Source: Comamonas thiooxydans
Lineage (GTDB): Bacteria > Pseudomonadota > Gammaproteobacteria > Burkholderiales > Burkholderiaceae_C
Reading direction: 5' to 3'
Length of the DNA stretch: 64,000 nt
Assembly (NCBI RefSeq): GCF_002157685.2
Contig: NZ_AP026738.1
Coordinates: 1-64,000, forward strand
Each line of letters opens with the position of its first letter. Position 1 is the stretch's first letter. The notes under the pieces are model-generated. The model was not told where the DNA came from. It was given only the letters and a program-made list of their open reading frames with translations, and did no database searches. This document shows, piece by piece, positions 15,499-33,178 of the stretch. Made by a program: the position numbers and the translations under genes.

Positions 15499-17670
15499 AT
15501 GCATGAAAAAAAGTGGGCTGAAGAGGCCCTGAATTCCTTTGATGCCGTGGTCGGGGCCATGCCGGGATTTCGCAGTCGTGATGGACAGCGAAAAATGGCG
15601 GCCCAGATCGCGCAAACGCTGAGCCAGGCCCAGCTCGGAAAAGTCGATGAAGGCGAGCCGGAACCGCGTCGCGCCATCGCTGTCGTGCAGGCTGGAACCG
15701 GGGTCGGAAAATCGCTGGCCTACAGCATTCCGGCCATTCGCATGGCGCTGTCGCGCGGCACGCGCGTGCTGATCTCCACAGCCACGGTGGCGCTGCAGGA
15801 ACAGCTGGTGAACAAGGATTTGCCGGCCCTGGCGCAAAAGCTGGACCAGCCTTTCAAATTCGCCCTGGCCAAGGGGCGTGGCCGCTTTGTCTGCAAACTC
15901 AAGCTGGAACGTCTGGCGAGCACGGGAGAAGCGCAGGACGAGATGGACGATCTGTTTGGCGATGAGCAGGGCCAGGCCAAGTTCAGCCGTCCTCAGCATG
16001 AACTGCAGGCCCGCATGCAGTTCTACAAATCCATGGCCGATGCGCTGGCCACGGAGGCCTGGAACGGCGACCGCGATTCACTGGAGACCCCGCCTGAGGC
16101 CGAGGCCTGGAGCCCCGTGGCTGCCGAATCCTCTTCATGCACCGGAAAGCACTGCCCGGCTTTCGGCAACTGCGTCTATTACGAACGCCGCAAAGACCTG
16201 GTGGCGGCGCAAGTCATTGTCGCCAACCATGATTTACTGCTTTCCTCGCTGGGCTCCAAGCTGCTGCCCGAGCTGGACAATTGCCTGCTGGTGCTCGACG
16301 AGGCCCACCACCTGCCTTCCACGGCTCTGGACCAGTTTGCCGGCGAGATGGATCTGAGCCGCCTGGGCTGGATCGACAAGCTGGCCAGCCGTGCGCTGCG
16401 CGTGAACCAGGTCGCCGAAGTCGAGGAACTGGCCGACGTGCCCAAGCATGCGGGTCAGCTGCGCCAGCAGATGCAGGAGCTGGCGCGACTGGTCATGGAG
16501 CACTACGGAGAGACTCTCAAATCGCAGAAAGACAGCTATGGGCCAGCCAGGGTACGGGCACCCCGCGGAATGCTGCCAGAGGCCCTTCTGGAGCCTCTGG
16601 GACAGATTGCGCACCATGCCGACGGCTTTCTGGATGCGCTGCGTGCCGTCTCCAAGGCTCTGCGTGCCGAAATCAAGGAACAACCCGAGGAAGCACAGCG
16701 CCTGTCCACCGTCTATGCGCAGGTAGGCGCCCTGGCACCCAGGCTGGAAGCCATTTTCAACACCACGCAATTGCTGCTGCAGAACAACGATAGCGATGGC
16801 GACGGCAAGATGGTGCCCCATGCCAAGTGGTTCACGCTGGAGATGGATGGCGAGTTCATCGTGGTCAAGGCCCATGCCAGTCCCATACAGCCCGGCTCCA
16901 CCCTGCGCCAGCACCTGTGGTCGCAGGTGCGCGGTGCGGTGCTGACATCCGCCACGCTGACCAGTTGCGGCCATTTCGACTTCTTTTTGCGTGAGGCGGG
17001 GCTGGCCAATGACGCCTCTGTCACCACGCTGGAAGTGCCAAGTCCCTTCGACTATGCGCGCCAGGGCACGCTGGTGGCCCGTGAAACGGCCTCAGACCCG
17101 CGCGAAGCCGCCCGCTTTACCGAGGAGATGGTCGAGGCCCTGCTGAACGATCTGAGCCGCATAGAGGCCGGCGCACTGGTCCTGTTCACATCCCGCGAGC
17201 AGATGCGCCAGGCCGTGGACGCGCTTTCCACCAGCATGCGCAACCAGGTGCTGGTGCAGACCGCCCTGCCCCGCCAGACTCTGCTGGCACGCCATCGTGA
17301 GGCCGTGGCGATGGGCGAGCCCTCCATCATCTTCGGCATGCAGTCCTTTGGCGAAGGACTGGACCTGCCCGGAGCGCTCTGCGAGTCCCTGTTCATCACC
17401 AAGCTGCCCTTTGCTCCTCCCGACGATCCCGTTGGCGAAGCCAGAGCCGAATGGCTGCGCAGCAGCGGCCGCAACCCCTTCAACGAGTTGGTGGTGCCGG
17501 CCACGGCCATTCGCCTGGCCCAGTGGGTAGGCCGCGCCATCCGCACCGAGGAAGACCAGGCCCATGTGTACTGCTACGACCGCCGCCTGACGGGCACCAG
17601 CTACGGCCAATTGCTCATCAAGGGCCTGCCGCCCTTCACGCTGCAACGGCGCCCTGTTTCAATGCCTTGA
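15499..17670 (+). CDS. dinG: ATP-dependent DNA helicase DinG
   Basis: Superfamily 2, XPD-like 5'-3' helicase that unwinds R-loops and damaged structures. The product is 723 residues. Walker A AGTGVGKS at 65-72; four iron-sulfur Cys candidates at 132, 214, 219 and 225 (FVCKLK and CTGKHCPAFGNC); DEAHH Walker B at 267-271; C-terminal helicase motifs including QSFGEGLDLPG and QWVGRAIRTEED. The start ATG has no strong ribosome site but gives the expected N-terminus. It stands alone between the two AT-rich gene-free regions. Confidence 0.95.
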   Translation: MHEKKWAEEALNSFDAVVGAMPGFRSRDGQRKMAAQIAQTLSQAQLGKVDEGEPEPRRAIAVVQAGTGVGKSLAYSIPAIRMALSRGTRVLISTATVALQEQLVNKDLPALAQKLDQPFKFALAKGRGRFVCKLKLERLASTGEAQDEMDDLFGDEQGQAKFSRPQHELQARMQFYKSMADALATEAWNGDRDSLETPPEAEAWSPVAAESSSCTGKHCPAFGNCVYYERRKDLVAAQVIVANHDLLLSSLGSKLLPELDNCLLVLDEAHHLPSTALDQFAGEMDLSRLGWIDKLASRALRVNQVAEVEELADVPKHAGQLRQQMQELARLVMEHYGETLKSQKDSYGPARVRAPRGMLPEALLEPLGQIAHHADGFLDALRAVSKALRAEIKEQPEEAQRLSTVYAQVGALAPRLEAIFNTTQLLLQNNDSDGDGKMVPHAKWFTLEMDGEFIVVKAHASPIQPGSTLRQHLWSQVRGAVLTSATLTSCGHFDFFLREAGLANDASVTTLEVPSPFDYARQGTLVARETASDPREAARFTEEMVEALLNDLSRIEAGALVLFTSREQMRQAVDALSTSMRNQVLVQTALPRQTLLARHREAVAMGEPSIIFGMQSFGEGLDLPGALCESLFITKLPFAPPDDPVGEARAEWLRSSGRNPFNELVVPATAIRLAQWVGRAIRTEEDQAHVYCYDRRLTGTSYGQLLIKGLPPFTLQRRPVSMP

Positions 17671-18429
17671 AGTCCTGAGCGAAGCGCGCCTTTCACACTG
17701 CTGATTCAAGGCCGTTTCGCAGCTCTTTTGCGCCATTCCAGAGGCGGGTTTTCAGCGTTCCAGACCTTCGCCGCATGGCTCTTTTCTGCATTGCTGCAGC
17801 GCCCTTCCTGCGCACTTTCACTCAGTCCTGGCGCACTCCGCGCATTTGTAATTTTTCTAACAGTTGCCGGGCACTGCGAGCGGCATCCTTCTTGCCGGCT
17901 TGGCAAGCCACAAAGTCTTGCCCGAAACGGTGCAGCCAGGCAGGTGTGCTGCAGATCCCATGGTTGTTGAGCAACTCCGGATTTCAGACCTGTCGGTGTT
18001 GGCGGGTGCCGCACTCTCCCAGCGCTTGCCACATCTGGTCCGGGCTTGCTCCACGGACAAGCGAAAAGTTCTTTTAAAACAATGATTTATAGATCATTGA
18101 ATTTTTTTGAATGAGTAGAGCGCAATCATGGCTGATATCGATTGCACGCACTCCCGGCCAGTTTCCCCCAGCTGTTCATAACATTCTGTGGATAACAGTC
18201 GCGTCAAAGACTCTTCAATGGGAATTTATCCCCACCTCCTGTCATCGAGGAGGCGCATCTTACGCCAATTTTTCGAGATCTGGCGCGTCAATTTTTCCAA
18301 AGCCCTTTTTTTCTGGACTTCCCTCTGAATCAAAGGGATTGGAGCGCCTGATCAGCTGCGATTTTGCATGGCCCCGGCTCTTGCCTATGACTTTGCCTTC
18401 AGTTGTTCTTTAGAAGTTTTATAAAAATA

Positions 18430-18444
18430 TAGTCGTAGTAGTAA
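18430..18444 (+). repeat. DnaA-trio-like run, copy 1
   Basis: TAG TCG TAG TAG TAA in register, preceded by ATAAAAATA. This resembles the TAG-type trinucleotides by which DnaA loads on single strand at bacterial unwinding elements. Confidence 0.45.
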
Positions 18445-18858
18445 GACTTGGCATCTGCTGTTGATAACTTTAAAAACTCAAGGCAAATCAAGCATCTTGC
18501 GTAATGACAAACATGGAGACAAATGACGGTTGCTGCTGTCCTCGATCCATGAACAACTTGGCCTTTTTCCATGTTTCTGTGGAAAACATGAAAGTTGATA
18601 TCTGCTTATCCACAGAAATCCATTTTCCTGTTGATTGGCAGTAAATGCTATTTATTCGTTGATATATAAGCGTTGTTAGCTATTATTTTTATAGTGAACA
18701 ACTGATGAAGACATGCTTGAGCACATTGGATGTCAAGGGTGTGATGTAGCAAGAACTGCTTGAAGCCGATCTGATCCGCCTCTTTTTTTATTCAGACCAT
18801 CTCCGATTGCTGTGTACACTTCGGCCAAAGTTGTTATTTCTAGTCTTATCTTTTTACT

Positions 18859-18877
18859 TAGTAGTAATAGTAAGTAG
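18859..18877 (+). repeat. DnaA-trio-like run, copy 2
   Basis: TAGTAGTAATAGTAAGTAG, a run of TAG and TAA triplets with one extra G, followed directly by a very AT-rich stretch to 18920. TTATC at 18846-18850 upstream is a partial DnaA box. Confidence 0.5.
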
Positions 18878-19079
18878 TTCACTTAATTGTTGATAAGTAA
18901 TTAATTTAATTTAAAATCAACAACTTATGATTTCTAAAAGCCTGTGCCCTTGCATGGGCTGCCGATGTCCTTGATTTGGGAACAACTTTCCAGAAGCCAG
19001 CCTGGCTGTGGAAAACAGAAAATTTCCTCGGCTTTTATCACCATGTTTATTCACAGGCCGTGCAACTGCTGCAAAGCAT

Positions 19080-19103
19080 GAAAAAAGCCGCCCGTTGGGC
19101 GGC
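19080..19103 (-). terminator. Terminator of pagL-like gene
   Basis: On the minus strand GCCGCCC-AAC-GGGCGGC followed by six T. It lies 33 bp beyond the pagL stop and marks the right edge of the origin candidate. Confidence 0.8.
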
Positions 19104-19135
19104 CTGGTCGACCCGGATAGCGCTGGCCCGGGAAT

Positions 19136-19711
19136 TCAGAAGTGGCGTGCGTATCGCAGCTGAAGAAAGTTCTCTCCCGGATTGGGGCGCTTGATGCCTG
19201 CATTGGACTGGTGCTCGAAGCGCAGGCTGATCTCGTTTTTCAGTTGCTCGCCAAACAGGTAGCCGATGCCTATATGGCTGGCAAAGTTGTAGCGGGTCGA
19301 AAATTCCTTGTGATCGGTGATGAAGCGGTGGTTGATGGCATAGCTCACGCCCAGGCCGGCTTGCAGGAACCAGGGAGACTGGCCTTGAGAGGGGCGCCAG
19401 CGTAATGTGGGTTGTGCACCCAGAACCCAGGTTGCACGATTGCCGCCCTGATAGTCGGCCGACCAACGGCTGACAGAGAGATCCCAGTAACCCGTCATCC
19501 GTCCCGAGCCAAGGGCGTAGCTCCAGTTCCAGGGGAGGATGACGCCGCCTGTCCAGCTGTCGGTGCTGTGCTCCGCCGAGCCGTATTGCAGATAGAGGGC
19601 AGTCGTCGATGTTTGAACAGGCTGTGCATGAAGCATGGGGCTTGCCAGGCTGATCAGCATCGGGATTACGAGATTCGTTGCCAATTGCGGTTTTTTCATG
19701 TCAATTGCCAT
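19136..19711 (-). CDS. pagL: Lipid A 3-O-deacylase, PagL family
   Basis: Outer-membrane beta-barrel hydrolase that removes the 3-position acyl chain of lipid A, altering endotoxin structure. The product is 191 residues with a signal peptide ending at MLHAQ, then alternating beta-strands typical of an eight-stranded barrel. The C-terminal motif FEHQSNAGIKRPNPGENF carries the PagL catalytic His and Ser (His167, Ser169) and a candidate Glu (Glu180), and the protein ends in Phe, as outer-membrane barrels do. MKKPQL (19699) is an alternative start that gives a cleaner signal peptide. Single gene with its own terminator. Confidence 0.85.
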   Translation of the reverse strand: MAIDMKKPQLATNLVIPMLISLASPMLHAQPVQTSTTALYLQYGSAEHSTDSWTGGVILPWNWSYALGSGRMTGYWDLSVSRWSADYQGGNRATWVLGAQPTLRWRPSQGQSPWFLQAGLGVSYAINHRFITDHKEFSTRYNFASHIGIGYLFGEQLKNEISLRFEHQSNAGIKRPNPGENFLQLRYARHF

Positions 19712-19860
19712 CTAAATGTTTTGAATCTGGTCGCGACATCGATGCCTGTGTCATGCTTGGATTTCGCTCCCTCTGTGGATATGAATCTAGAAGCTTGTGA
19801 ATAAATGTTCTGTCGGCAAGCGCTTGCGTTGGTAGTCAGCCAATTGATATCGATATGAAA

Positions 19861-20472: not shown

Positions 20473-20736
20473 GTCTGTTTCCTTTTCGGTTGAAGTGGAA
20501 GAAGTGGCCGCCTGGTCTTGCTCCTGAATGGGCATTCGGTAGCGGATGACTGAAGTGTGGACCCCCCATGTTTCTGAGACGTGAGGTTTTGCAGCCGCTC
20601 TGTAAAGATTTGATAAGTTTGAATAGCTCCGACTGCGCAACAATGGATGCATGGGCTGCGTTGGCGGCCGGTTTTTTTTTCCGCGAGATCCAGCTGCAGG
20701 AGCTGGCGACGATTGAAGGTTTAGCAAAGGTTTTTG

Positions 20737-21774
20737 ATGTTCAAGAACATGATTGTTTATCGCATTGCCGAGAGCTGGCAGAGCGATCTGCAGCAGCTCG
20801 AAGATGCGCTGCAAAAGACGGTGTTTGAGGAGTGCGGCGCGACCCAGGAGCGCTCCATGGGCTGGGTGCCGCCGCGCGGCGAGCCGCATGGCCCGCTGGC
20901 GGAAAGCGTGGCCGGCCAGTGGGTGATGCGCTTCATGAGCGAGTCCAAGATGCTGCCGGCCAGCGTGCTCAACCGCAAGGTCAACGAGAAGGCCGAGCAC
21001 ATCGAAAAGACCGAGGGCCGCAAGCCCGGCAAGAAGGAAAAGAAAGAGCTCAAGGACGAGGCCAAGCTGGACCTGCTGCCCATGGCCTTTACCAAGCAGG
21101 GAGCCATGTGGGTCTGGATCGATCCGCAGGCGCGCACGCTGGTGCTCGATACCAGTGCACAAGGTCGTGCCGACGAGATCGTGACGCTGTTGGTCGAAGG
21201 CCTGCCGGGTTTTGCATTGGCGTTGCTGGATACGCAGACCAGTCCGCAGGCCGCCATGGCGCACTGGTTGATGACGCAGGAGCCGCCAGAAGGTTTTTCC
21301 ATAGACCGCGAGTGCGAGCTCAAGGCCGCCGATGAGTCCAAGGCCGTGGTGCGCTATGCGCGCCACCCGCTCGATATCGACGAGGTGCGCCAGCATATCG
21401 AGCATGGCAAGTTGCCCACCAAGCTGGCCATGACCTGGGATGACCGCGTGAGCTTTGTGCTGAGCGAAGGTCTGCAGATCAAGAAGATCGCGTTGCTCGA
21501 TGCGGTGATGGATGGCAACAGCCAGGACGATGGCGGTTTCGATACCGATGTGGCAATTGCCACGGGCGAGCTCTCGCGTCTGATTCCCGATCTGATCGAG
21601 GCTCTGGGTGGGGAAGGGCGTACAGGCCTGGGTGACGGCCTGCCTGCATCGCTGTCGTCGGCGCCGGCCGCAGAAACCCTGCCCGTGCGTCTGGCACAGG
21701 GGCGCAGCCAGGGAACGGTCACCGGACCGGCCACGGCTCCAGCCGATACGGCCCCGGAAGAGGCGCCGTTCTGA
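20737..21774 (+). CDS. rdgC: Recombination-associated protein RdgC
   Basis: Ring-forming DNA-binding protein that limits RecA activity and is associated with the nucleoid. The product is 345 residues, somewhat longer than the roughly 303 of E. coli; the extra residues form a Pro/Ala-rich C-terminal tail. The N-terminus MFKNMIVYRIAESW and the segments MGWVPPRG, LLPMAFTKQGAMWVWID and LALLDTQTSPQAAMAHWL are characteristic. ATG at 20737 follows AAAGG at a 6-base spacing; a TTG one codon upstream is less likely. Single gene with its own terminator, 1.6 kb to the right of the origin candidate. Confidence 0.93.
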   Translation: MFKNMIVYRIAESWQSDLQQLEDALQKTVFEECGATQERSMGWVPPRGEPHGPLAESVAGQWVMRFMSESKMLPASVLNRKVNEKAEHIEKTEGRKPGKKEKKELKDEAKLDLLPMAFTKQGAMWVWIDPQARTLVLDTSAQGRADEIVTLLVEGLPGFALALLDTQTSPQAAMAHWLMTQEPPEGFSIDRECELKAADESKAVVRYARHPLDIDEVRQHIEHGKLPTKLAMTWDDRVSFVLSEGLQIKKIALLDAVMDGNSQDDGGFDTDVAIATGELSRLIPDLIEALGGEGRTGLGDGLPASLSSAPAAETLPVRLAQGRSQGTVTGPATAPADTAPEEAPF

Positions 21775-23278: not shown

Positions 23279-23294
23279 GGTTTCACGTGAAACC
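23279..23294. other. parS-like centromere site 1
   Basis: GGTTTCACGTGAAACC. The central 14 bases match the ParB-binding consensus TGTTTCACGTGAAACA exactly. Intergenic, between thiolase and cueR. Confidence 0.85.
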
Positions 23295-23305
23295 CATGAG
23301 CAGCC

Positions 23306-23812
23306 TCAGGCCGCAGCCCTGCGCCGGCTTCTCGGAGTGGGAGCCCTGGGTTCGTGATGGGCCGGTGTCAGGTCGGTGTCCGCGCTGGCCAGGTCGTCGA
23401 GGATGGGGCAGTCCGGCCTGTCATCGCCATGGCAGCAATGCACCAGGGTCTGCAGCGTGCGCTGCATGGACTGCATGGCGGCGATGCGCTCGGTCAGCGT
23501 GGCGATGTGCTTTTGCGCGATGGCCTTGACCTGACTGCTGGCGCGGCCCTGGTCCTGCCACAGGCCGAGCAGGGTGGCGATCTCGTCCATGGAAAAGCCG
23601 AGATCGCGCCCGCGGCGGATGAAGCGCAGCGCATGCACATCGGCTTCGGTGTACTGGCGATAGCCGCTGTCGGTTCGGTGCACGGGTGGCAGCAGGCCCA
23701 GTGACTCGTAGTGACGCACCATGCGCGCAGAAACCCCGGCGCGGCGTGCGGCCTCGCCGATGACGACAGGCCAGTTCTGAGCGATTTTTTGTGTCGATAG
23801 GTGGTTGGGCAT
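23306..23812 (-). CDS. cueR: Cu(I)-responsive MerR-family regulator CueR
   Basis: MerR-type activator of 168 residues that remodels promoters with over-long spacers. N-terminal winged helix (VIGEAARRAGVSARMVRHYESLGLLP), central dimerisation coiled coil, and C-terminal metal loop HCCHGDDRPDCPIL. Cys127 and Cys135 occupy the spacing of the two Cu(I) ligands of E. coli CueR (CPGDDSADC). Start MPNHLST is supported by AGGA upstream. It lies 76 bp after copZ on the same strand and probably autoregulates through the copZ promoter. The C-terminal tail past residue 140 is longer than in E. coli. Confidence 0.9.
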   Translation of the reverse strand: MPNHLSTQKIAQNWPVVIGEAARRAGVSARMVRHYESLGLLPPVHRTDSGYRQYTEADVHALRFIRRGRDLGFSMDEIATLLGLWQDQGRASSQVKAIAQKHIATLTERIAAMQSMQRTLQTLVHCCHGDDRPDCPILDDLASADTDLTPAHHEPRAPTPRSRRRAAA

Positions 23813-23888
23813 GGACGATCCTGAAAAAACGCGCCAGCAGCCTTCTGATGGCTTGCATGAGGTGCTGGCGCGGTGGGAGAGGTAGCGC

Positions 23889-24083
23889 TCAGGCGACCTT
23901 GTAGCCCTCTTCGGCAATGGCGGCTGCCACGGCCTCGCGGCTGGCGCCGGTTTCGACTTCCACTCGGTTGGCGGTGCGGTCGATCTTGATCTGCGCCTGG
24001 GCATCGACGCCCTGGATGGCGTTGGTGACGGCGCGTTCGCAGTGGCCGCAGGTCATGCCTTGAACTTCAAAAACTTGTTGCAT
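23889..24083 (-). CDS. copZ: Copper chaperone, heavy-metal-associated domain
   Basis: A 64-residue single ferredoxin-like HMA domain with metal motif GMTCGHC (Cys12, Cys15), as in CopZ/Atx1 proteins that carry Cu(I) to a P-type ATPase. Cytoplasmic. First gene of the copZ-cueR unit and directly downstream of a CueR-type promoter. No copA or oxidase gene is next to it, so the partner ATPase must be encoded elsewhere or absent. Confidence 0.9.
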   Translation of the reverse strand: MQQVFEVQGMTCGHCERAVTNAIQGVDAQAQIKIDRTANRVEVETGASREAVAAAIAEEGYKVA

Positions 24084-24137
24084 GGATGGCTCCTTCAGAA
24101 AGTGAGTCGACCGGACTGGCGGACTCCATGTCTTGAA

Positions 24138-24167
24138 TGGTTAACCCTAACATCATGGCAAGGTCAA
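24138..24167 (-). promoter_or_regulatory. CueR-type promoter of copZ
   Basis: On the minus strand a -35 element TTGACC is followed by an 18-base spacer and TAACCA, with a 21-bp imperfect dyad (24144-24164) of the form ACCTTGCC...TTAGGGT. Length and ends mirror the E. coli copA operator (ACCTTCC...GGAAGGT). Confidence 0.8.
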
Positions 24168-24215
24168 GCCTTTGACAAGACATGAAGCCGGCAGGGTTGA
24201 TAAGTCGCAAAGACT

Positions 24216-24223
24216 GCCGATAA
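24216..24223 (+). promoter_or_regulatory. Sigma-28 (FliA) -10 element candidate
   Basis: GCCGATAA, the exact flagellar sigma -10 octamer, 133 bp before the chemoreceptor start. The matching -35 (TTGATAAG at the right distance) is poor, which limits confidence. Confidence 0.4.
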
Positions 24224-24355
24224 GAACTTGTCATATTGCAGATCGCCATGGCTTGGACATCGCAGTCACGGGTTTTTCTCGGCGTCGGTGACAATCTGAA
24301 ACAATTTGCAAGTTCTGGCCCGACAATGCCAGTCGTTCAAAGTGGAGAGGGATTC

Positions 24356-26044
24356 ATGAGTCTGTTGGAAATGATGCGGGGCTTCACCATTCGCACGCGC
24401 ATGCTGGGCGCCATTGGTGTGGTGATGGTATTGCTGAGTCTGCTGGGGGGCGCCGGGATGTTGGGCATGTTCCGCATTCAGGACATGAGTCAGGAGTTTC
24501 TGAGCAACGCCTTTGTCAAATCGGGCCATATGGCGCAGTTGCGCACGGAGCTGGGCGGCATTCGTTCCAGTGAGAAGGACATGGTCATCCAGTACGAAAA
24601 GCCTGAAGAGGTGCGCAAGGCCTATCAGCAATGGGTCATGTTCATCGACAAATCCAAGGTGACATTGGGCAAGTTTGTGACCGACCAGAACGCGCAGGAC
24701 GCACAGCTGACCAAGAGCATCATTGGGCACATCGACGCTTATCGAAAGCTCTTCGAGCCTGTTGCACGCCAGCTTGAAGCCGGTGGCTATGACTCTGCCA
24801 CCACGGCCAACCGCATGAGCGGCAAGGCTCTGGCCGAAGTCATGGAGGCCGACAAGCTGCTGGCGCAGCTGGACAACCTGCTGCGTGAGCAGGCCAATGA
24901 ATTGGCCGCAGCCGAGCGCGACGTGGCCGACCAAACGCGCTGGATGTTTGTGGCGGCCGTGATTCTGGCGCTGGTGGTGGTGATTCCGCTGACTTTGCTG
25001 AACATGCTGTCCATCTGCCGTCCGCTTGAAGTGGCCCGTCAGATGGCACTGACGATTGCCGGCGGCGATCTGTCGCACAGGGCCGAGGTCAGCGGCAAGG
25101 ATGAACTGACGGATCTGCAGCGTGCGCTGGACCAGATGCAGCAATCGCTGAGCACCACGGTGGCCCAGGTGCGCGATGCCAGCGGCAATATCGCCACGGC
25201 CAGCCAGGAAATTGCCACGGGCAATCAGGATCTGTCGGCCCGAACCGAACAGACTGCCAGCAATCTGCAGGAAACCGTCGCGTCGCTGGCTCAGCTGACG
25301 GCCACGGTGCAGCAGACCGCATCGTCTTCGCAACTGGCCAACCAGCTGGCGGCCTCGGCCTCTTCGACGGCCGTGCAGGGCGGCGAGATCGTCGGCCAGG
25401 CCGTCAACAGCATGCAGGAGATTTCGGCCTCCAGCCGCAAGATCGGCGACATCATCGGCCTGATTGATTCCATTGCTTTCCAGACCAATATCCTGGCGCT
25501 GAATGCCGCTGTGGAAGCGGCCCGTGCCGGCGAGCAGGGTCGTGGTTTTGCCGTGGTGGCGGCCGAGGTGCGCAGCCTTGCCCAGCGTTCGGCACAGGCC
25601 GCCAACGAGATCAAATCGTTGATCAACACCAGCGTGCAGACCGTGGACGTGGGCGCGCGTCAGGTGGAGAGTGCAGGCAAGGCCATGCAGGAGACCGTGG
25701 ACAGCGCACAGCGTGTGGGCGACATCATTGGCGAGATTACGGCGGCGTCCAGCGAGCAGTCGCTGGGCATCAGCCAGGTCAATCAGGCCGTGGGTGATAT
25801 CGACCGCATGACCCAGCAGAATGCGGCACTGGTGGAAGAGTCTGCCGCCGCCGCAGAATCGCTGCGCGAGCAGGCGGCGCGACTGGCACAGCTGGTCAGC
25901 CAGTTCAAGCTGGCGGGCGGCGCGATACATGCAGTCATGCGCAGCCCCAGAGGCGCAGCCCATCCCGGCATGGCACCGGCGGTGCCTGCATCCGCTCAGA
26001 CTGCTTTGCCTGGTCAGAAGGCGCAATTGCTGGAACATGCCTGA
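24356..26044 (+). CDS. Methyl-accepting chemotaxis protein
   Basis: Inner-membrane chemoreceptor of 562 residues. TM1 (about 15-38), a four-helix-bundle periplasmic domain, TM2 (about 200-222), HAMP domain, then the long cytoplasmic coiled coil with the signalling hairpin ([35 protein letters not shown], in part). Adaptation Gln/Glu stretches flank it. The C-terminus has no NWETF-type CheR tether. The start [10 protein letters not shown] follows GGAGAGG; an upstream in-frame ATG at 24236 would add 40 unrelated residues. Isolated from other chemotaxis genes; the ligand is unknown. Confidence 0.93.
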
Positions 26045-26071
26045 GCCCTGAGCGGCTCATCCCTGAGCGGC
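26043..26071 (+). repeat. Partial stop-adjacent repeat after chemoreceptor
   Basis: CCCTGAGCGGCTC occurs twice in tandem right after the stop codon. This is the same core that opens the longer repeats at 31531, 56204 and 57710. Confidence 0.45.
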
Positions 26072-26081
26072 TCGTTCCATG

Positions 26082-26116
26082 AAAAAAGCCCGGTTGCAGT
26101 GATGCACCGGGCTTTT
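26082..26116. terminator. Terminator after chemoreceptor gene
   Basis: AAAAGCCCGGT-N11-ACCGGGCTTTT. An 11-bp stem with A/T ends that can serve both the chemoreceptor and the converging alkene reductase. Confidence 0.85.
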
Positions 26117-26178
26117 GCTTTTTATTCAATAGGCTCCAGCCAAATCAGAGAAAGGGCCGGAGGCTTGATGGATTGAAG

Positions 26179-27297
26179 TTACTGGCAGGCAACCGCTGGG
26201 TAGTCGGTATAACCATCGGCACCCCCCCCGTAGAAGCGCTCGCTGTTCCAGGCATTGAGCGGCAGATCGTCGCGTAGGCGGTGCACCAGATCGGGGTTGG
26301 AGATATAGGCCTTGCCGAAGGCCACGACATCGGCATAGCCGCTTTCCACGGCGCGCGTGGCCAGTTGGCGGTCATAGCCGTTGTTGACCATCCAGGCTCC
26401 CTTGCCGTCTGCAGAGCGATAGGCCTGCTTGAGTGCCTGGTAGTCGAAGGGACGATCCGCCAGCTCGCGCGGGCCGCCAGTTGCGCCTTCGATCACATGG
26501 ATATAGGACAGGCCCAGCGGGGCGAGCTGGCGCACCAGATATTCGAACAGCACCTGCGGGTTTTCGTCCACGATGTCATTGGCTGGCGTGACCGGAGAGA
26601 TGCGGATGCCGACCTTTCCGGCACCGATGGCATCGGCCACGGAGCGTACGCATTCCAGCACCAGACGGGCGCGGTTCTCGATGCTGCCGCCGTAGTCGTC
26701 GCTGCGCTGGTTGGTGCCGGTCTTGAGGAATTGATCGAGCAGATAGCCGTTGGCTGCATGCAGCTCCACGCCATCGAAGCCCGCCGACTGTACGGCTTCG
26801 CGCGCGGCGGTGGCGAAACTGTGAACAATGCCTGGCAGCTCCTGCTGCCTGAGTGCGCGCGGTGCCGAGGTGGCGACAAACTGGCCTTGCCCGGTCTGCT
26901 TGTCGATCACATAGGTCTTGGAGCGGGCCGTCAGCGCGGAGGGCGCGACCGGGGGCTGGCTGTCTGGCTGCAGCACGTTGTGGGAGATGCGACCCACATG
27001 CCAGAGCTGGGTGACGATGCGGCCACCCTTGGCATGCACGGCATCGGTGACTTTTTTCCAGGCCCGCAGTTGCTCTTCGTCATACAGACCGGGCACATCG
27101 GCATAGCCCTGTCCCTGGTGGCTGATGGCCGTGCCTTCGCTGATCAGCAGACCGGCAGAGGCGCGCTGGACGTAGTAGGTTTGCATCAGCGGCGTGGGTA
27201 TCGCGTCGGGGGCGCGGTTGCGCGTCAGCGGTGCCATGGCAATGCGGTTGGGCAGACGCAGGCTGCCTGCTTCAATCGGTTCGAACAATGAGGTCAT
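26179..27297 (-). CDS. Old Yellow Enzyme family alkene/nitroester reductase
   Basis: FMN-dependent NAD(P)H oxidoreductase of 372 residues, reducing activated C=C bonds of enals, enones or nitro compounds. TIM-barrel motifs: FEPIEAGSLRLPNRIAMAPLTRNRA at the start, TQLWHVGRISH, the substrate-anchoring His-Asn pair in GVELHAANGYLLDQFL, DDYGGSIENRARL, and ADVVAFGKAYISNPDL at the phosphate site. NemA/XenA-like. It follows a GST gene and an FMN reductase on the same strand, a set consistent with electrophile detoxification, though a terminator separates it from the GST gene. Confidence 0.93.
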   Translation of the reverse strand: MTSLFEPIEAGSLRLPNRIAMAPLTRNRAPDAIPTPLMQTYYVQRASAGLLISEGTAISHQGQGYADVPGLYDEEQLRAWKKVTDAVHAKGGRIVTQLWHVGRISHNVLQPDSQPPVAPSALTARSKTYVIDKQTGQGQFVATSAPRALRQQELPGIVHSFATAAREAVQSAGFDGVELHAANGYLLDQFLKTGTNQRSDDYGGSIENRARLVLECVRSVADAIGAGKVGIRISPVTPANDIVDENPQVLFEYLVRQLAPLGLSYIHVIEGATGGPRELADRPFDYQALKQAYRSADGKGAWMVNNGYDRQLATRAVESGYADVVAFGKAYISNPDLVHRLRDDLPLNAWNSERFYGGGADGYTDYPAVACQ

Positions 27298-27312
27298 GCA
27301 GAACTCCAGATG

Positions 27313-27340
27313 AAAAAAGCTCGGTGGGTACCGAGCTTTT
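27313..27340 (-). terminator. Terminator between GST and alkene reductase genes
   Basis: AGCTCGGT-GGGT-ACCGAGCT with six A on the plus strand, read as a T-run on the minus strand. It lies just after the GST stop. Confidence 0.8.
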
Positions 27341-27364
27341 GAGTGTGCATGGGTGTCGAAAAAC

Positions 27365-27973
27365 TTACTTGAGCAAGCCCTCTGCCTTCATGGCAGCCTG
27401 CACTGCGGGACGCGCCAGAATGCGTTCGCGATAAGCCTGAAGGTGCTGGAGTTCAGAGATATCCAGGCCCACAAATTGGGCCCAGCCTGTGACCGTGAAA
27501 AAGTAGGCATCGGCCACAGTGAACTGATCGCCCATCAGATAGGACTTGTTGGCGAGCTGCTCGTTGACCCAGCTCAGGCGCTTGAACAGATTGCCGAGCA
27601 GCACGGGCTTGAAGTCTTCGGGCGTTGCGGGGCTGAACAAGGGGCTGAAGCCCTTGTGCACCTCGGTGCTGATGAAGTTCAGCCATTCCTGAAGGTGGTA
27701 GCGGGCCACGGTGCCGTTGGCCGGTGCCAGGTTCTTTTCGGGGGCCAGATCGGCGAGGTACTGAACAATGGCCGGACCTTCGTGCAAGGTGTCGCCGTTG
27801 TCCAGTACCAGAAAGGGCACATAACCCAGGGGATTGATGCCGTAGTAATCCGTTCCGTCCTGGAGCTTGTGGCTCTTGGTGCTGACCATCACGGTTTCAT
27901 GCGGCAGGCCTGCTTCATGCAGCACGATGTGCGGAGACATGGAGCAAGCGCCGGGGCTGTAGTAAAGCTTCAT
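27365..27973 (-). CDS. Glutathione S-transferase, beta class
   Basis: Cytosolic GST of 202 residues. MKLYYSPGACSMSPHIVLHEAGLP is the classic bacterial beta-class N-terminus with Cys10; NPLGYVPFL is the cis-Pro loop, and the C-terminal domain contains YLMGDQFTVADAYFFTVTGWA. An upstream in-frame ATG (27994) would add seven residues and is less likely. It shares the VADAYFFTVTGW pattern with the GST at 5483 but is otherwise a separate, more typical member. Confidence 0.93.
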   Translation of the reverse strand: MKLYYSPGACSMSPHIVLHEAGLPHETVMVSTKSHKLQDGTDYYGINPLGYVPFLVLDNGDTLHEGPAIVQYLADLAPEKNLAPANGTVARYHLQEWLNFISTEVHKGFSPLFSPATPEDFKPVLLGNLFKRLSWVNEQLANKSYLMGDQFTVADAYFFTVTGWAQFVGLDISELQHLQAYRERILARPAVQAAMKAEGLLK

Positions 27974-28078
27974 GGTGAGTGGCTCTCTATGCAATGAAAA
28001 GACAAGCGCCCATGCTAAACCGGTTGCACTTCATATGCATGCGCAGCCGGCAGAAGTCCGGATCGGAGAGGAGATTGC

Positions 28079-28654
28079 TCAGCCCAGGCGCCCTGCGGCC
28101 CACAGCACCTGCTGCACAAGAGCCTCCATGCCTTGCTGGTTCTGTGTACGCAGCAGATGACCCTGGGCATCGAAAGCCTCTGCCGCATGGCTCACGGCAT
28201 GGCTGCGCGGTGCTACCCAGCATTCCAGATTCAATAGCAGCGCAGCTAGGTGAGACTGGGCCCTCAGGCCGCCAAGACCGCCAGGTGAGGCACTGGCCAT
28301 GCCGACGACCTTGTTGCGAAAGGGCAGAACGCCATCGGACCACTGTGCATCGCCCTTGACCGGGCTGGAGGCCCAGTCGATCGCGTTCTTGAGCAGGGCA
28401 GGGTAGCTGCCGTTGTATTCGGGGCTGCAGACAATCCAGGCAGCATGGCTATGCATGGCCTGCTTGAGACGAATGACGTCGGCAGGCGTTCCCCGAGCTT
28501 CGAGGTCGGCGTTGTAGAGCGGAATGTCGTAGTCCGACAATTCCAGCAGGCTGGGCTGTGCGCCTTGTTGTTCCGCGATGGAGGCTGCGACCTTGGCCAG
28601 CTTGCGGTTGTACGAATCCTGGCGGGTACTGCCCGCGAAAATGAGTATTTGCAT
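28079..28654 (-). CDS. NAD(P)H-dependent FMN reductase
   Basis: Flavodoxin-fold reductase of 191 residues (NADPH-dependent FMN reductase / chromate reductase family). MQILIFAGSTRQDSYNRKLA carries the phosphate-binding GSxRxxSxN-type loop and SPEYNGSYPALLKNAIDW the flavin-contacting motif. It supplies reduced flavin or reduces quinones or metal ions; the substrate is unknown. An in-frame ATG at 28690 would add 12 residues with three Cys; neither start has a strong ribosome site. Minus strand, 105 bp upstream of the GST gene. Confidence 0.88.
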   Translation of the reverse strand: MQILIFAGSTRQDSYNRKLAKVAASIAEQQGAQPSLLELSDYDIPLYNADLEARGTPADVIRLKQAMHSHAAWIVCSPEYNGSYPALLKNAIDWASSPVKGDAQWSDGVLPFRNKVVGMASASPGGLGGLRAQSHLAALLLNLECWVAPRSHAVSHAAEAFDAQGHLLRTQNQQGMEALVQQVLWAAGRLG

Positions 28655-28741
28655 GCAGTGATTGCAGCACAGAGCGATTGCATTTTTCATGCATAGACGG
28701 GACTATCAGGGCAAACATCTAGGCTGGGCTTCAGGTCGCCA

Positions 28742-28757
28742 TGTTTCACGTGAAACC
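28742..28757. other. parS-like centromere site 2
   Basis: TGTTTCACGTGAAACC, 15 of 16 consensus bases. It lies in the divergent gap between the FMN reductase and mnmG. Confidence 0.9.
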
Positions 28758-28909
28758 CCCCTGGCAAGGCATTGTTGGGCCAATGGTGGGAAAATTGCAG
28801 GTTCCCCGCAGGGCTGGACATGGCGCGAGAACATGTCCGCCTGCCGTGAGAGCCGAGGCATGGTTGCTTCGTGCAGGGGCAAGGGCCGGGCTTGGCCCGG
28901 AGCAGGAAT

Positions 28910-30874
28910 ATGTTGTACCCACAGGAATTTGATGTGATCGTGGTCGGTGGCGGCCATGCCGGCACCGAGGCTGCGTTGGCCGCTGCGCGCATGGGCAGCA
29001 AGACATTGCTGCTGACCCACAATATCGAAACCCTGGGGCAGATGAGCTGCAACCCCAGCATCGGCGGTATCGGCAAGGGCCATCTGGTCAAGGAGGTCGA
29101 TGCTCTGGGCGGCGCCATGGCCCTGGCTACGGACAAGGGCGGCATCCAGTTCCGCATCCTGAACAGCTCCAAGGGCCCGGCCGTACGCGCTACGCGCGCC
29201 CAGGCCGACCGCATTCTGTACAAGGCCGCGATTCGCGAGATGCTGGAAAACCAGCCCAATCTCTGGCTCTTCCAGCAGGCCGTGGATGATCTGATGGTGG
29301 AGGGTGACCGCGTGGTCGGTGCCGTCACCCAGGTGGGTCTCAAGTTCCGCAGCCGCACCGTGGTGCTGACGGCGGGCACCTTCCTCGATGGCAAGATCCA
29401 TGTGGGCCTGAACAACTATGCCGCAGGCCGTGCTGGCGATCCTCCGGCCGTGAGCCTGTCGGCGCGCCTGAAGGAACTCAAGCTGCCACAGGGGCGCCTG
29501 AAGACCGGAACGCCACCGCGCATCGACGGCCGCAGCATCGATTTCAGCCAGTGCGAGGAACAGCCCGGCGACGGCATGCCTGGCGGTGTCAACGAGGGCG
29601 AAGTGCCCGTGTTCAGCTTCATGGGCAACCGTGCCATGCATCCCCGGCAGATGCCTTGCTGGATCACGCACACCAATGCGCGCACGCACGAGATCATCCG
29701 CAGCGGCTTTGACCGCAGTCCCATGTTCACCGGCAAGATCGAGGGTGTGGGTCCGCGTTACTGCCCCAGCGTGGAAGACAAGATCAACCGTTTCGCGGAC
29801 AAGGAAAGCCATCAGATCTTTCTGGAGCCCGAAGGCCTGACCACGCACGAGTTCTACCCCAACGGGATCTCCACCAGCCTGCCGTTCGACATCCAGTACG
29901 AACTGGTGCGCAGCATGAAGGGGCTGGAGAACGCCCATATCCTGCGTCCCGGCTATGCCATCGAGTACGACTATTTCGATCCCCGCTCGCTCAAGAGCAG
30001 TTTCGAGACCAAGCAGATTCAAGGTCTGTTCTTTGCGGGCCAGATCAATGGTACGACCGGCTATGAAGAGGCGGCCGCCCAGGGCCTGTTCGCCGGCTTG
30101 AACGCAGCGCTGCAGTGCCGTGGCGAAGGCCCCTGGATGCCGCGTCGTGACGAGGCCTATCTGGGCGTGCTGGTCGACGATCTGATCACCAAGGGCGTGA
30201 CCGAGCCCTATCGCATGTTCACCAGCCGCGCCGAGTTCCGCCTGCAACTGCGTGAAGACAATGCCGACATGCGTCTGACCGAAGCGGGCCGCCAGATGGG
30301 GCTGGTCGACGATGCGCGCTGGGACTCCTTCAGTCGCAAGCGCGATGCTGTTTCACGTGAAACAGAGCGCCTCAAGTCCACCTGGGTGAACCCGCGTGTC
30401 GTGACTGCGGAAGAGTCCGAGCGCGTGCTGGGCAAGGCCATGGAGCGCGAATACAACCTGTTCGACCTGCTGCGTCGCCCTGGTGTGGACTACGACAAGC
30501 TCATGGGCATGAACCAGGGCCGGTATGCCTCTGCCGATGTGCAGCCTGAGGCGCTGGGCGAACTCAGCGCTCCAGTGATCGAGCAGGTGGAGATCGCCGC
30601 GAAGTACTCTGGCTATATCGACCGCCAGAAGGATGAGGTAGAACGTGCCGCGCATTTCGAGCGTCTGCGTCTGCCGCTGGACTTCGACTATATGCAGGTG
30701 GCGGCGCTTTCCTTCGAGGTGCGCCAGAAGCTGCAAAAGCACAGGCCCGAAACCCTGGGTCAGGCCTCGCGTATTTCGGGAGTGACGCCTGCCGCCATCT
30801 CGCTGCTCATGGTGCATCTGAAAAAAGGCGGCTTCAAGGGCTTTGCCAATCAGAACGAAGAGGCTTCCGCATGA
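28910..30874 (+). CDS. mnmG: tRNA uridine-34 carboxymethylaminomethyl enzyme MnmG (GidA)
   Basis: FAD-dependent partner of MnmE that installs the cmnm5 group on wobble U34 of several tRNAs. The product is 654 residues. Dinucleotide-binding motif [15 protein letters not shown] at 8-22, then the signatures [24 protein letters not shown] and [21 protein letters not shown], and a C-terminal helical domain for MnmE binding. Start MLYPQEF follows AGGA closely. The last codons overlap rsmG by ATGA. A parS site is embedded in the coding sequence at 30349. Confidence 0.98.
30349..30364. other. parS-like site 3, inside mnmG
   Basis: Perfect TGTTTCACGTGAAACA within the mnmG reading frame, where it encodes the residues Val-Ser-Arg-Glu. 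Confidence 0.92.
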
Positions 30875-31530
30875 GCCAGGTTTTGCGTACCCAACTGGAG
30901 CAGGGCGTTCAGGCACTGAAGCTGGAACTGGCACCGGCGCAGATCGATCTGCTGATGTCCTTCATGGATCTGCTGCAGAAATGGAACAAGGTCTACAACC
31001 TGACGTCGGTGCGTGATCCCCAGGAGATGCTGACACATCACCTGCTCGACAGCCTGGCCGCCGTGCCCGCCTTGCTGCGGCATGTGAACCGCCTGCCGGT
31101 GGAAGAAGGCAAGCGCCTGCCTCTGCTGGACGTGGGCTCCGGCGGTGGTCTGCCCGGTGTGGTGTTTGCCATCTGCTGCCCGCAGATCGATGTGAACTGC
31201 GTGGATACCGTGGGCAAGAAGGCCGCTTTCATCCAGCAGGTGGCTGCCTCCCTGCGCCTGCCCAATCTGCGCGGCATTCATGATCGGGTGGAAAATCTCA
31301 AGACCCGCTATCCGGTCATCAGCTGCCGCGCCTTTGCGTCCTTGGTGGACTTCACCACCTGGTCGCGCAAGGCGCTGGCCGAGGACGGCATCTGGTTTGC
31401 CATGAAGGGCAAGCACCCTGATGAGGAAATTGCTGCGCTGCCTGCCGATGTGAAAGTGTTTCACGTGGAACCATTGCAGGTTCCCGGCCTGGATGCCGAG
31501 CGCTGCGTCATCTGGTTGAAAATCGAGTAA
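30871..31530 (+). CDS. rsmG: 16S rRNA m7G527 methyltransferase RsmG (GidB)
   Basis: SAM-dependent methyltransferase acting on G527 of 16S rRNA; loss gives low-level streptomycin resistance in other bacteria. The product is 219 residues. [19 protein letters not shown] and HHLLDSLA at the N-terminus and the SAM loop [14 protein letters not shown] are typical. It overlaps mnmG by four bases (ATGA), so the two are translationally coupled. A degenerate parS lies in its 3' part. Confidence 0.97.
31457..31472. other. Degenerate parS-like site 4, inside rsmG
   Basis: TGTTTCACGTGGAACC: one change in the core (A to G) and one at the edge. It keeps the CACGTG centre and may be a weaker ParB site. Confidence 0.6.
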
Positions 31531-31590
31531 CCCCCTGAGCGGCTTTGCCGCTTCCCCCTGGAAAGGGGACGACGCCTTCGCCGCAGGGCG
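31531..31590 (+). repeat. Stop-adjacent REP-like repeat, copy 1
   Basis: Begins on the base after the rsmG stop: CCCCCTGAGCGGC, then GCCGC, CCCCCTGG and GGGGACGACGCC. Alternating self-complementary blocks give a cloverleaf-like fold. The same order of blocks occurs at 56132-56204 on the minus strand. Confidence 0.7.
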
Positions 31591-31766
31591 GCGGGGCCGC
31601 CCAGGCCTTTGCTTGGCGTCCTCGACCTGGGCCGGCACATATCGAAGTCGCTGGCCACGGCGAAAACCGTTTTTTTACACACCGTATCGGACAACATCTG
31701 CGCAATGCAGATGCGCCGGTCACGGCCCTCGCATAAACTTGCTGTTTTCCATCGCGCAGGGTTTGA

Positions 31767-32378
31767 ATGTTTGGCATCTCTGATTACGGCGCTTTTGCAG
31801 CCGCCGTTACCGTCTTCTTGCTGATCCCTGGACCGGGCAATCTGGCCTTGATTACCTCCACGGGCAAGGGCGGATGGAGAGCCGGTGTCGCCTGCTGCCT
31901 GGGTGTGATGGCCGCCGACCAGGTGCTGATGTGGCTGGCTGTTGCCGGTGTGGCCGCGGTGCTGGCCGCCTATCCAGCGGCCTTCCATGCCGTGCAATGG
32001 GTGGGGGCGGCCTATCTGGCCTGGCTGGGCTACAAGCTGCTCACGGCCAAGCCCGGCGATGCGCCGGCCATTGAAATCCAGCCGCGCCAGTATTTCCGTC
32101 AGGGTGCTTTGATCACCCTGATGAACCCCAAGGCCATCGTGTTCTACATGGCCTTCTTTCCCATGTTCGTGGACCCGGCCAATCACCAGGGCGCCATCAC
32201 CTTTGGCGTGATGGCCGCCACGGTGGCGGCAATTACCTTTATCTACAGCGTCATCGTGGTGACGCTGACCACGGTGCTGGCAGAGCGTTTGCGTGCCAAT
32301 CCGGCCGTGGTGAAGTGGCTGGAAAAAACAGCCGGTGTGTTTCTGATCGGTTTTGGCCTCAAGCTGGCCACCAACTAA
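31767..32378 (+). CDS. LysE/RhtB-family amino-acid exporter
   Basis: Inner-membrane efflux protein of 203 residues with about six hydrophobic helices. Family hallmarks: the N-terminal VFLLIPGPGNLALITSTGKGGWRAG region and the central LMNPKAIVFYMAFFP motif. Exports an amino acid or derivative; substrate unknown. It sits between rsmG and parA in the same direction, 12 bp before parA, so it may be co-transcribed with the partition genes. Confidence 0.9.
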   Translation: MFGISDYGAFAAAVTVFLLIPGPGNLALITSTGKGGWRAGVACCLGVMAADQVLMWLAVAGVAAVLAAYPAAFHAVQWVGAAYLAWLGYKLLTAKPGDAPAIEIQPRQYFRQGALITLMNPKAIVFYMAFFPMFVDPANHQGAITFGVMAATVAAITFIYSVIVVTLTTVLAERLRANPAVVKWLEKTAGVFLIGFGLKLATN

Positions 32379-32390
32379 AAGAGAAGTTCA

Positions 32391-33161
32391 ATGGCCAAAA
32401 TTTTCTGCGTTGCCAATCAAAAGGGTGGAGTGGGCAAGACCACGACCACGGTCAATCTTGCCGCCGGTCTGGCCAAGGTCGGCCAGCGTGTGTTGCTGAT
32501 CGACCTGGACCCGCAGGGCAATGCCACCATGGGCTCCGGCGTGGACAAGCGCGCGCTGGAGCTGACGGTCTACGACGTGCTGCTGGAAAACGCCAGCGTC
32601 AAGGAAGTGGCTCAGAAGTCCGAGCAGGTCGGCTACGACGTGCTGGGTGCCAACCGTGAGCTGTCGGGTGCCGAGATCGAGCTGGTCTCGCTGGAGCGCC
32701 GCAACGAGCGCCTCAAGACTGCTCTGCAGGCCGTGGCCGCCGACTATGACTTTGTGCTGATCGACTGCCCGCCTTCGCTGTCCATGCTGACCCTGAACGG
32801 TCTGTGCTCGGCGCATGGCGTGATCGTGCCCATGCAGTGCGAGTACTTTGCGCTGGAAGGTCTGACCGACCTGGTCAACACCATCAAACAGGTGCATGCG
32901 AACATGAACCCTGACCTGCAGATCATCGGTCTGCTGCGCGTGATGTTCGATCCGCGCACCACGCTGCAGCAGCAGGTCAGCGACCAGCTCAAGGAACATT
33001 TCGGCGACAAGGTGTTCGATACCGTGATTCCGCGCAATGTACGCCTGGCCGAAGCCCCCAGCTACGGTTTGCCCGGTGTGGTGTTCGATGCCTCGGCCAA
33101 GGGCAGCAAGGCCTTTGTCGAGTTTGCCGAAGAGATGGTGCGACGCATCAAGAAAATGTGA
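32391..33161 (+). CDS. parA: Chromosome partitioning ATPase ParA (Soj)
   Basis: Deviant Walker-type ATPase of 256 residues that forms the gradient pulling ParB-parS complexes. KGGVGKTTT at 11-19 carries the signature Lys, DLDPQGNATMGSG is the Walker A' region, and DCPPSLSMLTLNGL the Walker B region. No N-terminal HTH, as expected for chromosomal (type Ib-like) ParA. AGAGAAG precedes the ATG. A perfect parS starts two bases after its stop; parB is 616 bp further on. Confidence 0.97.
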   Translation: MAKIFCVANQKGGVGKTTTTVNLAAGLAKVGQRVLLIDLDPQGNATMGSGVDKRALELTVYDVLLENASVKEVAQKSEQVGYDVLGANRELSGAEIELVSLERRNERLKTALQAVAADYDFVLIDCPPSLSMLTLNGLCSAHGVIVPMQCEYFALEGLTDLVNTIKQVHANMNPDLQIIGLLRVMFDPRTTLQQQVSDQLKEHFGDKVFDTVIPRNVRLAEAPSYGLPGVVFDASAKGSKAFVEFAEEMVRRIKKM

Positions 33162-33162
33162 G

Positions 33163-33178
33163 TGTTTCACGTGAAACA
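33163..33178. other. parS-like centromere site 5
   Basis: Perfect TGTTTCACGTGAAACA directly after the parA stop codon. Confidence 0.93.

What the first reader, a model, noticed from the sequence alone, without database searches (positions are those of the whole stretch)
17671..19080. Candidate oriC away from dnaA, between dinG and pagL
Several independent signs coincide: a 1.4-kb gene-free AT-rich region, two exact and four near-exact DnaA boxes, DnaA-trio-like runs, and a change of GC skew. Hand counts on sampled 60-base lines of the plus strand: gyrB (5 lines) G 91 / C 109; RND gene, coded on minus (2 lines) 32/41; dinG (2 lines) 35/47; then rdgC (2 lines) 38/30; thiolase, coded on minus (2 lines) 43/36; mnmG (6 lines) 125/111; parA-parB (3 lines) 65/55. 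The sign flips between about 17.6 and 20.7 kb regardless of gene direction. Most betaproteobacterial origins are assumed to sit beside dnaA.
Basis: partly seen in the sequence, partly recalled or inferred. Interest (0 to 1): 0.8.

Follow-up and report, generated by a model that had tools for sequence, protein, structure and literature searches.

The report
Comamonas replication origin with twin modules
The gap between dinG and pagL is almost certainly where this Comamonas chromosome starts copying itself, 17 kb from the initiator gene dnaA, and it holds two near-copies of a rigidly spaced DNA-opening module that recurs, at different chromosomal addresses, in a number of related bacteria.

Summary
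Confirmed and sharpened. GC skew reaches its minimum at base 18325 in the 104 kb read around it; 40 sampled 20-kb stretches put the opposite switch at 2.76-3.04 Mb, near the antipode. Five of six parS-like palindromes of the 5.9-Mb chromosome lie 4-14 kb away. The region holds 8 DnaA boxes, the most AT-rich 100 bp of the window and the chromosome's only two trio+box sites under the pattern used. They form two colinear units: trio, 14 bp, DnaA box, 119 bp, divergent box pair (28-bp type, then 40-bp type). Unit 2 has an exact IHF consensus. Both units recur in 13 aligned Comamonas/Delftia-type loci. The 118/119-bp distance holds in 76 of 80 units with a pair. The origin follows rdgC, not dinG. 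Of 22 family genomes with unit and dnaA on one contig, 5 have it in the dnaA-dnaN gap, 17 at 7.6-259 kb. An origin away from dnaA is a known kind (C. metallidurans, in print); twin modules, ruler and changing address look new. Initiation itself is untested.

The parts
17671..19135 (.). non-coding region between dinG and pagL that contains the origin
   Evidence: ORFs and Pfam; no Rfam match
18187..19055 (.). core oriC: 8 DnaA boxes with at most 1 mismatch
18187..18195 (-). left outlying exact DnaA box (TTATCCACA); a near box TTATCCCCA follows at 18226 (+)
18430..18445 (+). unit 1 DnaA-trio run (TAGTCGTAGTAGTAAG), likely unwinding site
18459..18467 (-). unit 1 DnaA box (TTATCAACA), 14 bp from the trio
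18578..18614 (.). unit 1 divergent DnaA-box pair, 119 bp from the unit box, 28-bp type (18578 minus; 18606 plus, exact)
18829..18887 (+). unit 2 AT-rich stretch with trios TAGTAGTAATAGTAA at 18859-18873, likely main unwinding element
18888..18896 (-). unit 2 DnaA box (TTATCAACA), 14 bp from the trio
18915..18927 (+). exact IHF consensus (AATCAACAACTTA), 18 bp after the unit 2 box; one of 4 exact matches in 64 kb; exact in 12 of 13 aligned loci
19007..19055 (.). unit 2 divergent DnaA-box pair, 119 bp from the unit box, 40-bp type (19007 minus, 19047 plus)
18325..18325 (.). cumulative GC-skew minimum of window plus the 40 kb before it
19136..19711 (-). pagL (lipid A 3-O-deacylase), landmark: in several genera a 40-type pair lies next to its 3' end
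20734..21774 (+). rdgC, landmark gene that the origin follows in the nearer relatives
15499..17670 (+). dinG helicase gene, neighbour only
1..1407 (+). dnaA initiator gene, 17 kb from the first unit
23279..33178 (.). five parS-like palindromes (23279, 28742, 30349, 31457, 33163)

Best explanation
This is the chromosomal origin oriC. DnaA binds the boxes. From the box of each unit it would spread leftwards onto the trio strand and melt the AT-rich DNA. IHF bending just behind the unit 2 box would bring the box pair 119 bp away back onto the complex, and helicase is then loaded. The origin holds two such modules in tandem, facing the same way; unit 2 (five trios, 79% AT, exact IHF consensus) is probably the main opening site and unit 1 an auxiliary or alternative one. 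Shown here: location, sequence elements, spacing, conservation. Inferred: DnaA and IHF binding, melting, initiation, and the division of labour between the units. The stated confidence is for its being oriC; for both units being active it is about 0.6.
For: Skew minimum at 18325 and a sampled chromosome-wide switch; third-position skew flips irrespective of gene strand. The trio+box pattern occurs at only two distinct sites in 5.9 Mb, both here, with 0 control hits in this genome. parS-like sites cluster beside it. Both units are recognisable in all 13 aligned Comamonas/Delftia-type sequences: each box within 2 mismatches of the consensus, trio runs of three or more in 13 of 13 (unit 1) and 12 of 13 (unit 2, interrupted in L047). 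Box cluster and skew minimum move together in 17 dinG loci where the cluster lies up to 6.7 kb after dinG (L046-L060, L088, L099). In 37 stretches from the family that hold a unit or pair, most centred on it, the skew minimum is within 1 kb of one in 20, against 4.8 expected. An exact IHF consensus occurs at one fixed offset in 17 of 70 distinct units, 0.45 expected from shuffles.
Against: No initiation, binding or marker-frequency data. In 17 of those 37 stretches the skew minimum is not within 1 kb of a unit, and in C. denitrificans-type L092 it is 8.8 kb away from dinG's end on the other side. Unit 1 of the window lacks an exact IHF match. No dif site was found with two recalled patterns, so the terminus rests on sampled skew alone. 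Another DnaA-box cluster lies upstream of dinG (14894-15266).
Confidence: 0.93

Rival explanations
1. The true origin is beside dnaA, and the 18-kb cluster is a DnaA-titrating or DnaA-reactivating site (like datA or DARS).
For: An exact box lies at 5914024, 74 bases before dnaA, with a further near box in the same stretch (sequence). DnaA-box clusters without a trio do exist elsewhere in this genome (upstream of dinG; between priA and hemE). Five relatives do have the unit between dnaA and dnaN.
Against: Skew keeps falling from dnaA to 18325. No trio+box match near dnaA in this genome. A titration site would not need trios, an AT-rich element, parS neighbours and a skew switch.
Confidence: 0.04
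2. The origin is bipartite, with the dinG-upstream cluster (14894-15266) and the dinG-pagL cluster acting together across dinG.
For: Five boxes with at most 1 mismatch upstream of dinG; such a cluster is kept in Comamonas, weaker in Delftia.
Against: That cluster has no trio run and stays with dinG when the rest of the origin is 3-7 kb away beside rdgC, so it looks like a dinG promoter or other DnaA-binding regulatory site.
Confidence: 0.08
3. It is oriC, but only one of the two units works; the other is a decaying duplicate.
For: Unit 1 has fewer trios and no exact IHF match. The units align with a modest score (70 against a shuffle mean of 26 and maximum of 51). 25 of 52 loci with a trio+box site show no second one within 200-700 bp under the pattern used.
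Against: Both units are recognisable in 13 of 13 aligned loci, and the order 28-type then 40-type recurs in other genera (L070, L094, L183, L194). Tandem trio+box sites recur in another family, f7 (G402, G663, G686).
Confidence: 0.35

Closest known systems
Basal unwinding system (BUS) of Bacillus subtilis oriC and its bacterial relatives (PMC8287927, passages read)
   Same: DnaA box, short spacer, DnaA trios in the same order; in some relatives of this genome it even lies between dnaA and dnaN
   Different: two modules in tandem, 17 kb from dnaA, each followed by a box pair at 119 bp, unit 2 with an IHF-like site
Escherichia coli oriC (recalled)
   Same: away from dnaA; unwinding element, box, IHF site, further boxes in that order
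   Different: runs of TAG/TAA trios, different box spacing, neighbours pagL-rdgC rather than mnmG-mioC, repeated module
Cupriavidus metallidurans CH34 chromosome 1 skew transition (PMC2864759, passages read)
   Same: skew switch with three exact DnaA boxes in 213 nt, about 90 kb from dnaA; related bacterium
   Different: no module structure in the passages read; not compared base by base here
Bipartite origin of Helicobacter pylori (PMC8235120, search listing and start of abstract only; partly recalled)
   Same: two DnaA-binding parts in one origin; DnaA trios
   Different: here no gene separates the two units and each has its own trio. In some relatives units do flank rdgC (L166, L167, L188)

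Membership tests
DnaA-dependent chromosomal oriC | cluster of DnaA boxes above chance | tested here: met
   8 in 869 bp; window 21 against 4.7 expected
DnaA-dependent chromosomal oriC | AT-rich unwinding element beside a box | tested here: met
   most AT-rich 100 bp of the window in 18831-18940
DnaA-dependent chromosomal oriC | GC-skew minimum of the chromosome | tested here: met
   18325 within 104 kb; 40 sampled stretches agree, the whole genome was not read
DnaA-dependent chromosomal oriC | replication starts there | not testable with these tools
   needs marker frequency, nascent-strand mapping or a plasmid replication assay
Basal unwinding system (BUS) | at least 3 trios within 16 bp of a DnaA box, correct order | tested here: met
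   14 bp in both units; rule from PMC8287927
IHF-assisted (E. coli-like) origin | IHF site between the first box and further boxes | tested here: inconclusive
   exact in unit 2, not exact in unit 1; consensus recalled; binding untested
Bipartite origin (H. pylori-like) | two DnaA-binding parts separated by a gene | tested here: not met
   no gene between the units in the window
datA/DARS-type DnaA control site | DnaA boxes without unwinding element, away from the skew minimum (as recalled) | tested here: not met
   trios, AT-rich element and skew minimum present

The most novel reading that the evidence does not exclude
In this family the origin is a portable cassette of about 200 bp with a fixed internal ruler (trio, 14 bp, box, IHF-like site at +18, second box at 118/119 bp, partner at 28 or 40 bp). 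It has changed chromosomal address, between the dnaA-dnaN gap, the pagL-rdgC neighbourhood and elsewhere. In Comamonas and kin it works as a two-module origin with two non-equivalent unwinding sites, in some genera split around rdgC. Other families may use another ruler of the same kind (87/88 bp and 36 bp).
Probability: 0.45. Interest if true: 0.78.

Novelty: new variant of a known kind. Interest (0 to 1): 0.62.

Why it matters
Bacterial origins are usually described as very diverse in build. Here a spacing preserved to within a base pair across many genera, at different addresses, gives a ready ruler for how DnaA, IHF and the melted strand fit together. Twin unwinding modules allow a direct test of whether one origin can open at two places. 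A family with the unit both inside and outside dnaA-dnaN makes origin relocation studiable. It also warns against reading base 1 of such chromosomes, set at dnaA, as the origin.

Tried and rejected
Considered and rejected: origin at dnaA (skew, trios); dinG as the landmark; a dinG-spanning bipartite origin (the cluster upstream of dinG has no trio and follows dinG). A third box-to-box match at 119 bp in this genome (5802018-5802145) shows no trio in the printed sequence and no partner box with at most 1 mismatch nearby, so it is taken as unrelated. dif searches with two recalled patterns found nothing.

Limits of the ruler. At order level 20 of 53 listed box-box matches had 118 or 119 bp (tallied by hand; two of 31 allowed gaps, so about 3.4 expected), but 11 of those 20 come from the 12 rows of family f1; outside it 9 of 41 do (about 2.6 expected), and the search had 2 control hits. 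None of the 7 f7 genomes, nor the f5, f26 and f15 ones, whose trio+box sites were read has the pair at 116-126 bp; several show weak matches at 87/88 bp with a 36-bp pair (up to 4 mismatches, exact only in L245 of f15). The +18 IHF match recurs at one site each in 4 of the 7 f7 genomes (L237, L238, L240, L242). Units in the dnaA-dnaN gap do keep 118/119 bp (L199, L221-L224), three of them only at 3-4 mismatches over the pair; a stricter first scan missed those three.

The order-level trio+box search had 9 control hits in 8 of 300 genomes against matches in 15 of 300, so single hits there are weak; in the family the control was 0 in all 126. An early third-codon list held ORFs not verified as genes, one wrong (28706 minus instead of mnmG); recomputed with verified genes.

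Papers: ten searches showed none on a Comamonas oriC among what they listed (several lists were capped); (Comamonas, oriC, DnaA box) found 0. DoriC may hold predicted origins for these genomes; its entries were not available, so priority for the bare location is not claimed. No search was aimed at the 119-bp spacing.

Full report
What is there. The window is bases 1-64000 of a single 5,914,097-base contig with dnaA starting at base 1. The closest named records by dinG are Comamonas testosteroni and an unnamed Comamonas (98-99% identity). Between dinG (ends 17670) and pagL (minus, 19136-19711) lies a region without a recognisable gene.

Skew. The cumulative GC-skew minimum of the window joined to the 40 kb before it is at 18325; the value is -422 at dnaA and -1023 at the minimum. 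Forty sampled 20-kb stretches: from 64 kb to 2.76 Mb 16 of 18 are positive, the other two about zero (-0.002, -0.003); at 2.84 and 2.94 Mb the two signs differ; from 3.04 Mb to the end 20 of 20 are negative. The switch brackets the antipode of 18 kb (2.975 Mb). Third-position skew on the plus strand flips at the same place whatever the gene strand (7 of 8 left negative, first 5 of 5 right positive, next four mixed). Block permutation: range 843 against a maximum of 605 in 5000.

Elements. Eight DnaA boxes with at most one mismatch fall in 18187-19055. The only two runs of three or more TA[GA] in the 64 kb are at 18436 and 18859. Over the whole chromosome the pattern TAGTARTAR-N10-20-TGTKGAYAA occurs at two distinct sites, both here. 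The most AT-rich 100 bp of the window is in 18831-18940. Five of six parS-like palindromes of the genome with up to 2 mismatches lie at 23.3-33.2 kb; the sixth, at 5857353, has 2 mismatches.

Two units. 18348-18615 and 18771-19056 align colinearly (score 70; 200 shuffles: mean 26, maximum 51). Each reads trio, 14 bp, box, 119 bp, divergent box pair; the pair spacing is 28 in unit 1 and 40 in unit 2. In the window and 12 Comamonas/Delftia-type loci aligned (output partly cut; elements read again), each of the six unit boxes is within 2 mismatches of the consensus in all 13; trio runs of three or more are uninterrupted in 13 of 13 (unit 1) and 12 of 13 (unit 2); the IHF consensus of unit 2 is exact in 12 of 13. 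The surrounding DNA varies much more.

Which neighbour does it follow? Of 59 dinG loci, 12 of the C. testosteroni group and Delftia type (L046-L055, L088, L099) have the densest box cluster and the skew minimum 0.46-1.5 kb after dinG. In five C. aquatica/kerstersii-type loci (L056-L060) both lie 3.3-6.9 kb after dinG but still before rdgC. In three C. denitrificans-type loci (L091, L092, L095) the cluster is between dinG and rdgC; the skew minimum is near in two of three. L094 has its cluster 2.2 kb after dinG, before rdgC. The remaining 38, mostly Acidovorax and kin, have at most one box within 2.2 kb after dinG; a few of these have a cluster farther on, in L064 just before a pagL-rdgC pair. 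So the origin follows rdgC, often with pagL, not dinG.

Beyond the genus. The divergent box pair occurs in 60 of 397 family genomes, with no control hit in the table. In the window and loci L046-L104 and L165-L204, 85 trio+box sites were found; 80 have a box pair. The distance is 119 in 58, 118 in 18, and 116, 117, 126 and 267 once each; the pair spacing is 40 in 42 and 28 in 35. Two trio+box sites 200-700 bp apart on one strand occur in 27 of 52 loci with a site, window and repeats included. In some genomes units flank rdgC (L166, L167, L188). The skew minimum is within 1 kb of a unit or pair in 20 of 37 stretches, 4.8 expected; 17 of 37 miss. An exact IHF consensus occurs in 17 of 70 distinct units, always at the same offset; shuffles give 0.45.

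Address. The trio+box pattern was found in 31 of 126 family genomes (controls 0 in all 126). In 22 of the 31 dnaA is on the same contig: 5 have the unit in the dnaA-dnaN gap (G040, G057, G073, G090, G113), and 17 have it 7.6 to 259 kb from dnaA. The other 9 could not be measured. The 95 genomes without a match are not evidence of absence, since the pattern is strict. Order-wide 15 of 300 genomes match, with 9 control hits in 8 genomes. Sites in family f7 include tandem units (G402, G663, G686) and an IHF-like match at the same offset in 4 of 7 genomes, but no pair at 119 bp.

Mechanism. Established: box-adjacent trios guide DnaA onto single strand and open the origin (PMC8287927, passages). 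Inferred: here DnaA opens unit 2 and perhaps unit 1, with IHF bending to bring the pair at 119 bp into the complex. Direction of opening, from order and strand, is leftwards.

Known or new. An origin separate from dnaA is known, also among related bacteria (PMC2864759, passages); for B. cenocepacia the exact place is reported unclear (PMC4948915, passages). The searches named in Tried and rejected listed nothing on a Comamonas origin. The twin-module build and the conserved ruler were not met in the passages read. Hence: new variant of a known kind.

Noticed in passing
14894-15266: A second DnaA-box cluster (5 boxes with at most 1 mismatch, 2 exact) upstream of dinG, without trios; kept with dinG in Comamonas and in weaker form in Delftia, so possibly DnaA control of dinG.
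   Followed up: partly
L205:5958-6303 (G000 439957-440302): Three DnaA boxes (two exact, one near) between priA and hemE, with similar arrays in five other genomes (L206-L210); candidate DnaA-regulated or DnaA-control site. Genes were named only in L205, from the ORF sequence, not by a family search.
   Followed up: partly
G000:C1:20734, 1742636, 2190027, 4475397: Four rdgC-like genes in this genome; the three others are 84-90% identical to the origin copy. Of 91 family genomes with a match most show one.
   Followed up: no
19774-19804: Two further near DnaA boxes just beyond the start of pagL.
   Followed up: no
L236, L238, L240, L241, L242, L245: Trio+box sites of families f7 and f15 show a partner pair at 87/88 bp with 36-bp spacing, exact in L245 and weak in the others; perhaps a second ruler.
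   Followed up: no
18551-18559 and 18979-18987: A motif like GGGnACAActt stands before the box pair in the unit profile (window GAACAACTT); no binding protein assigned.
   Followed up: no
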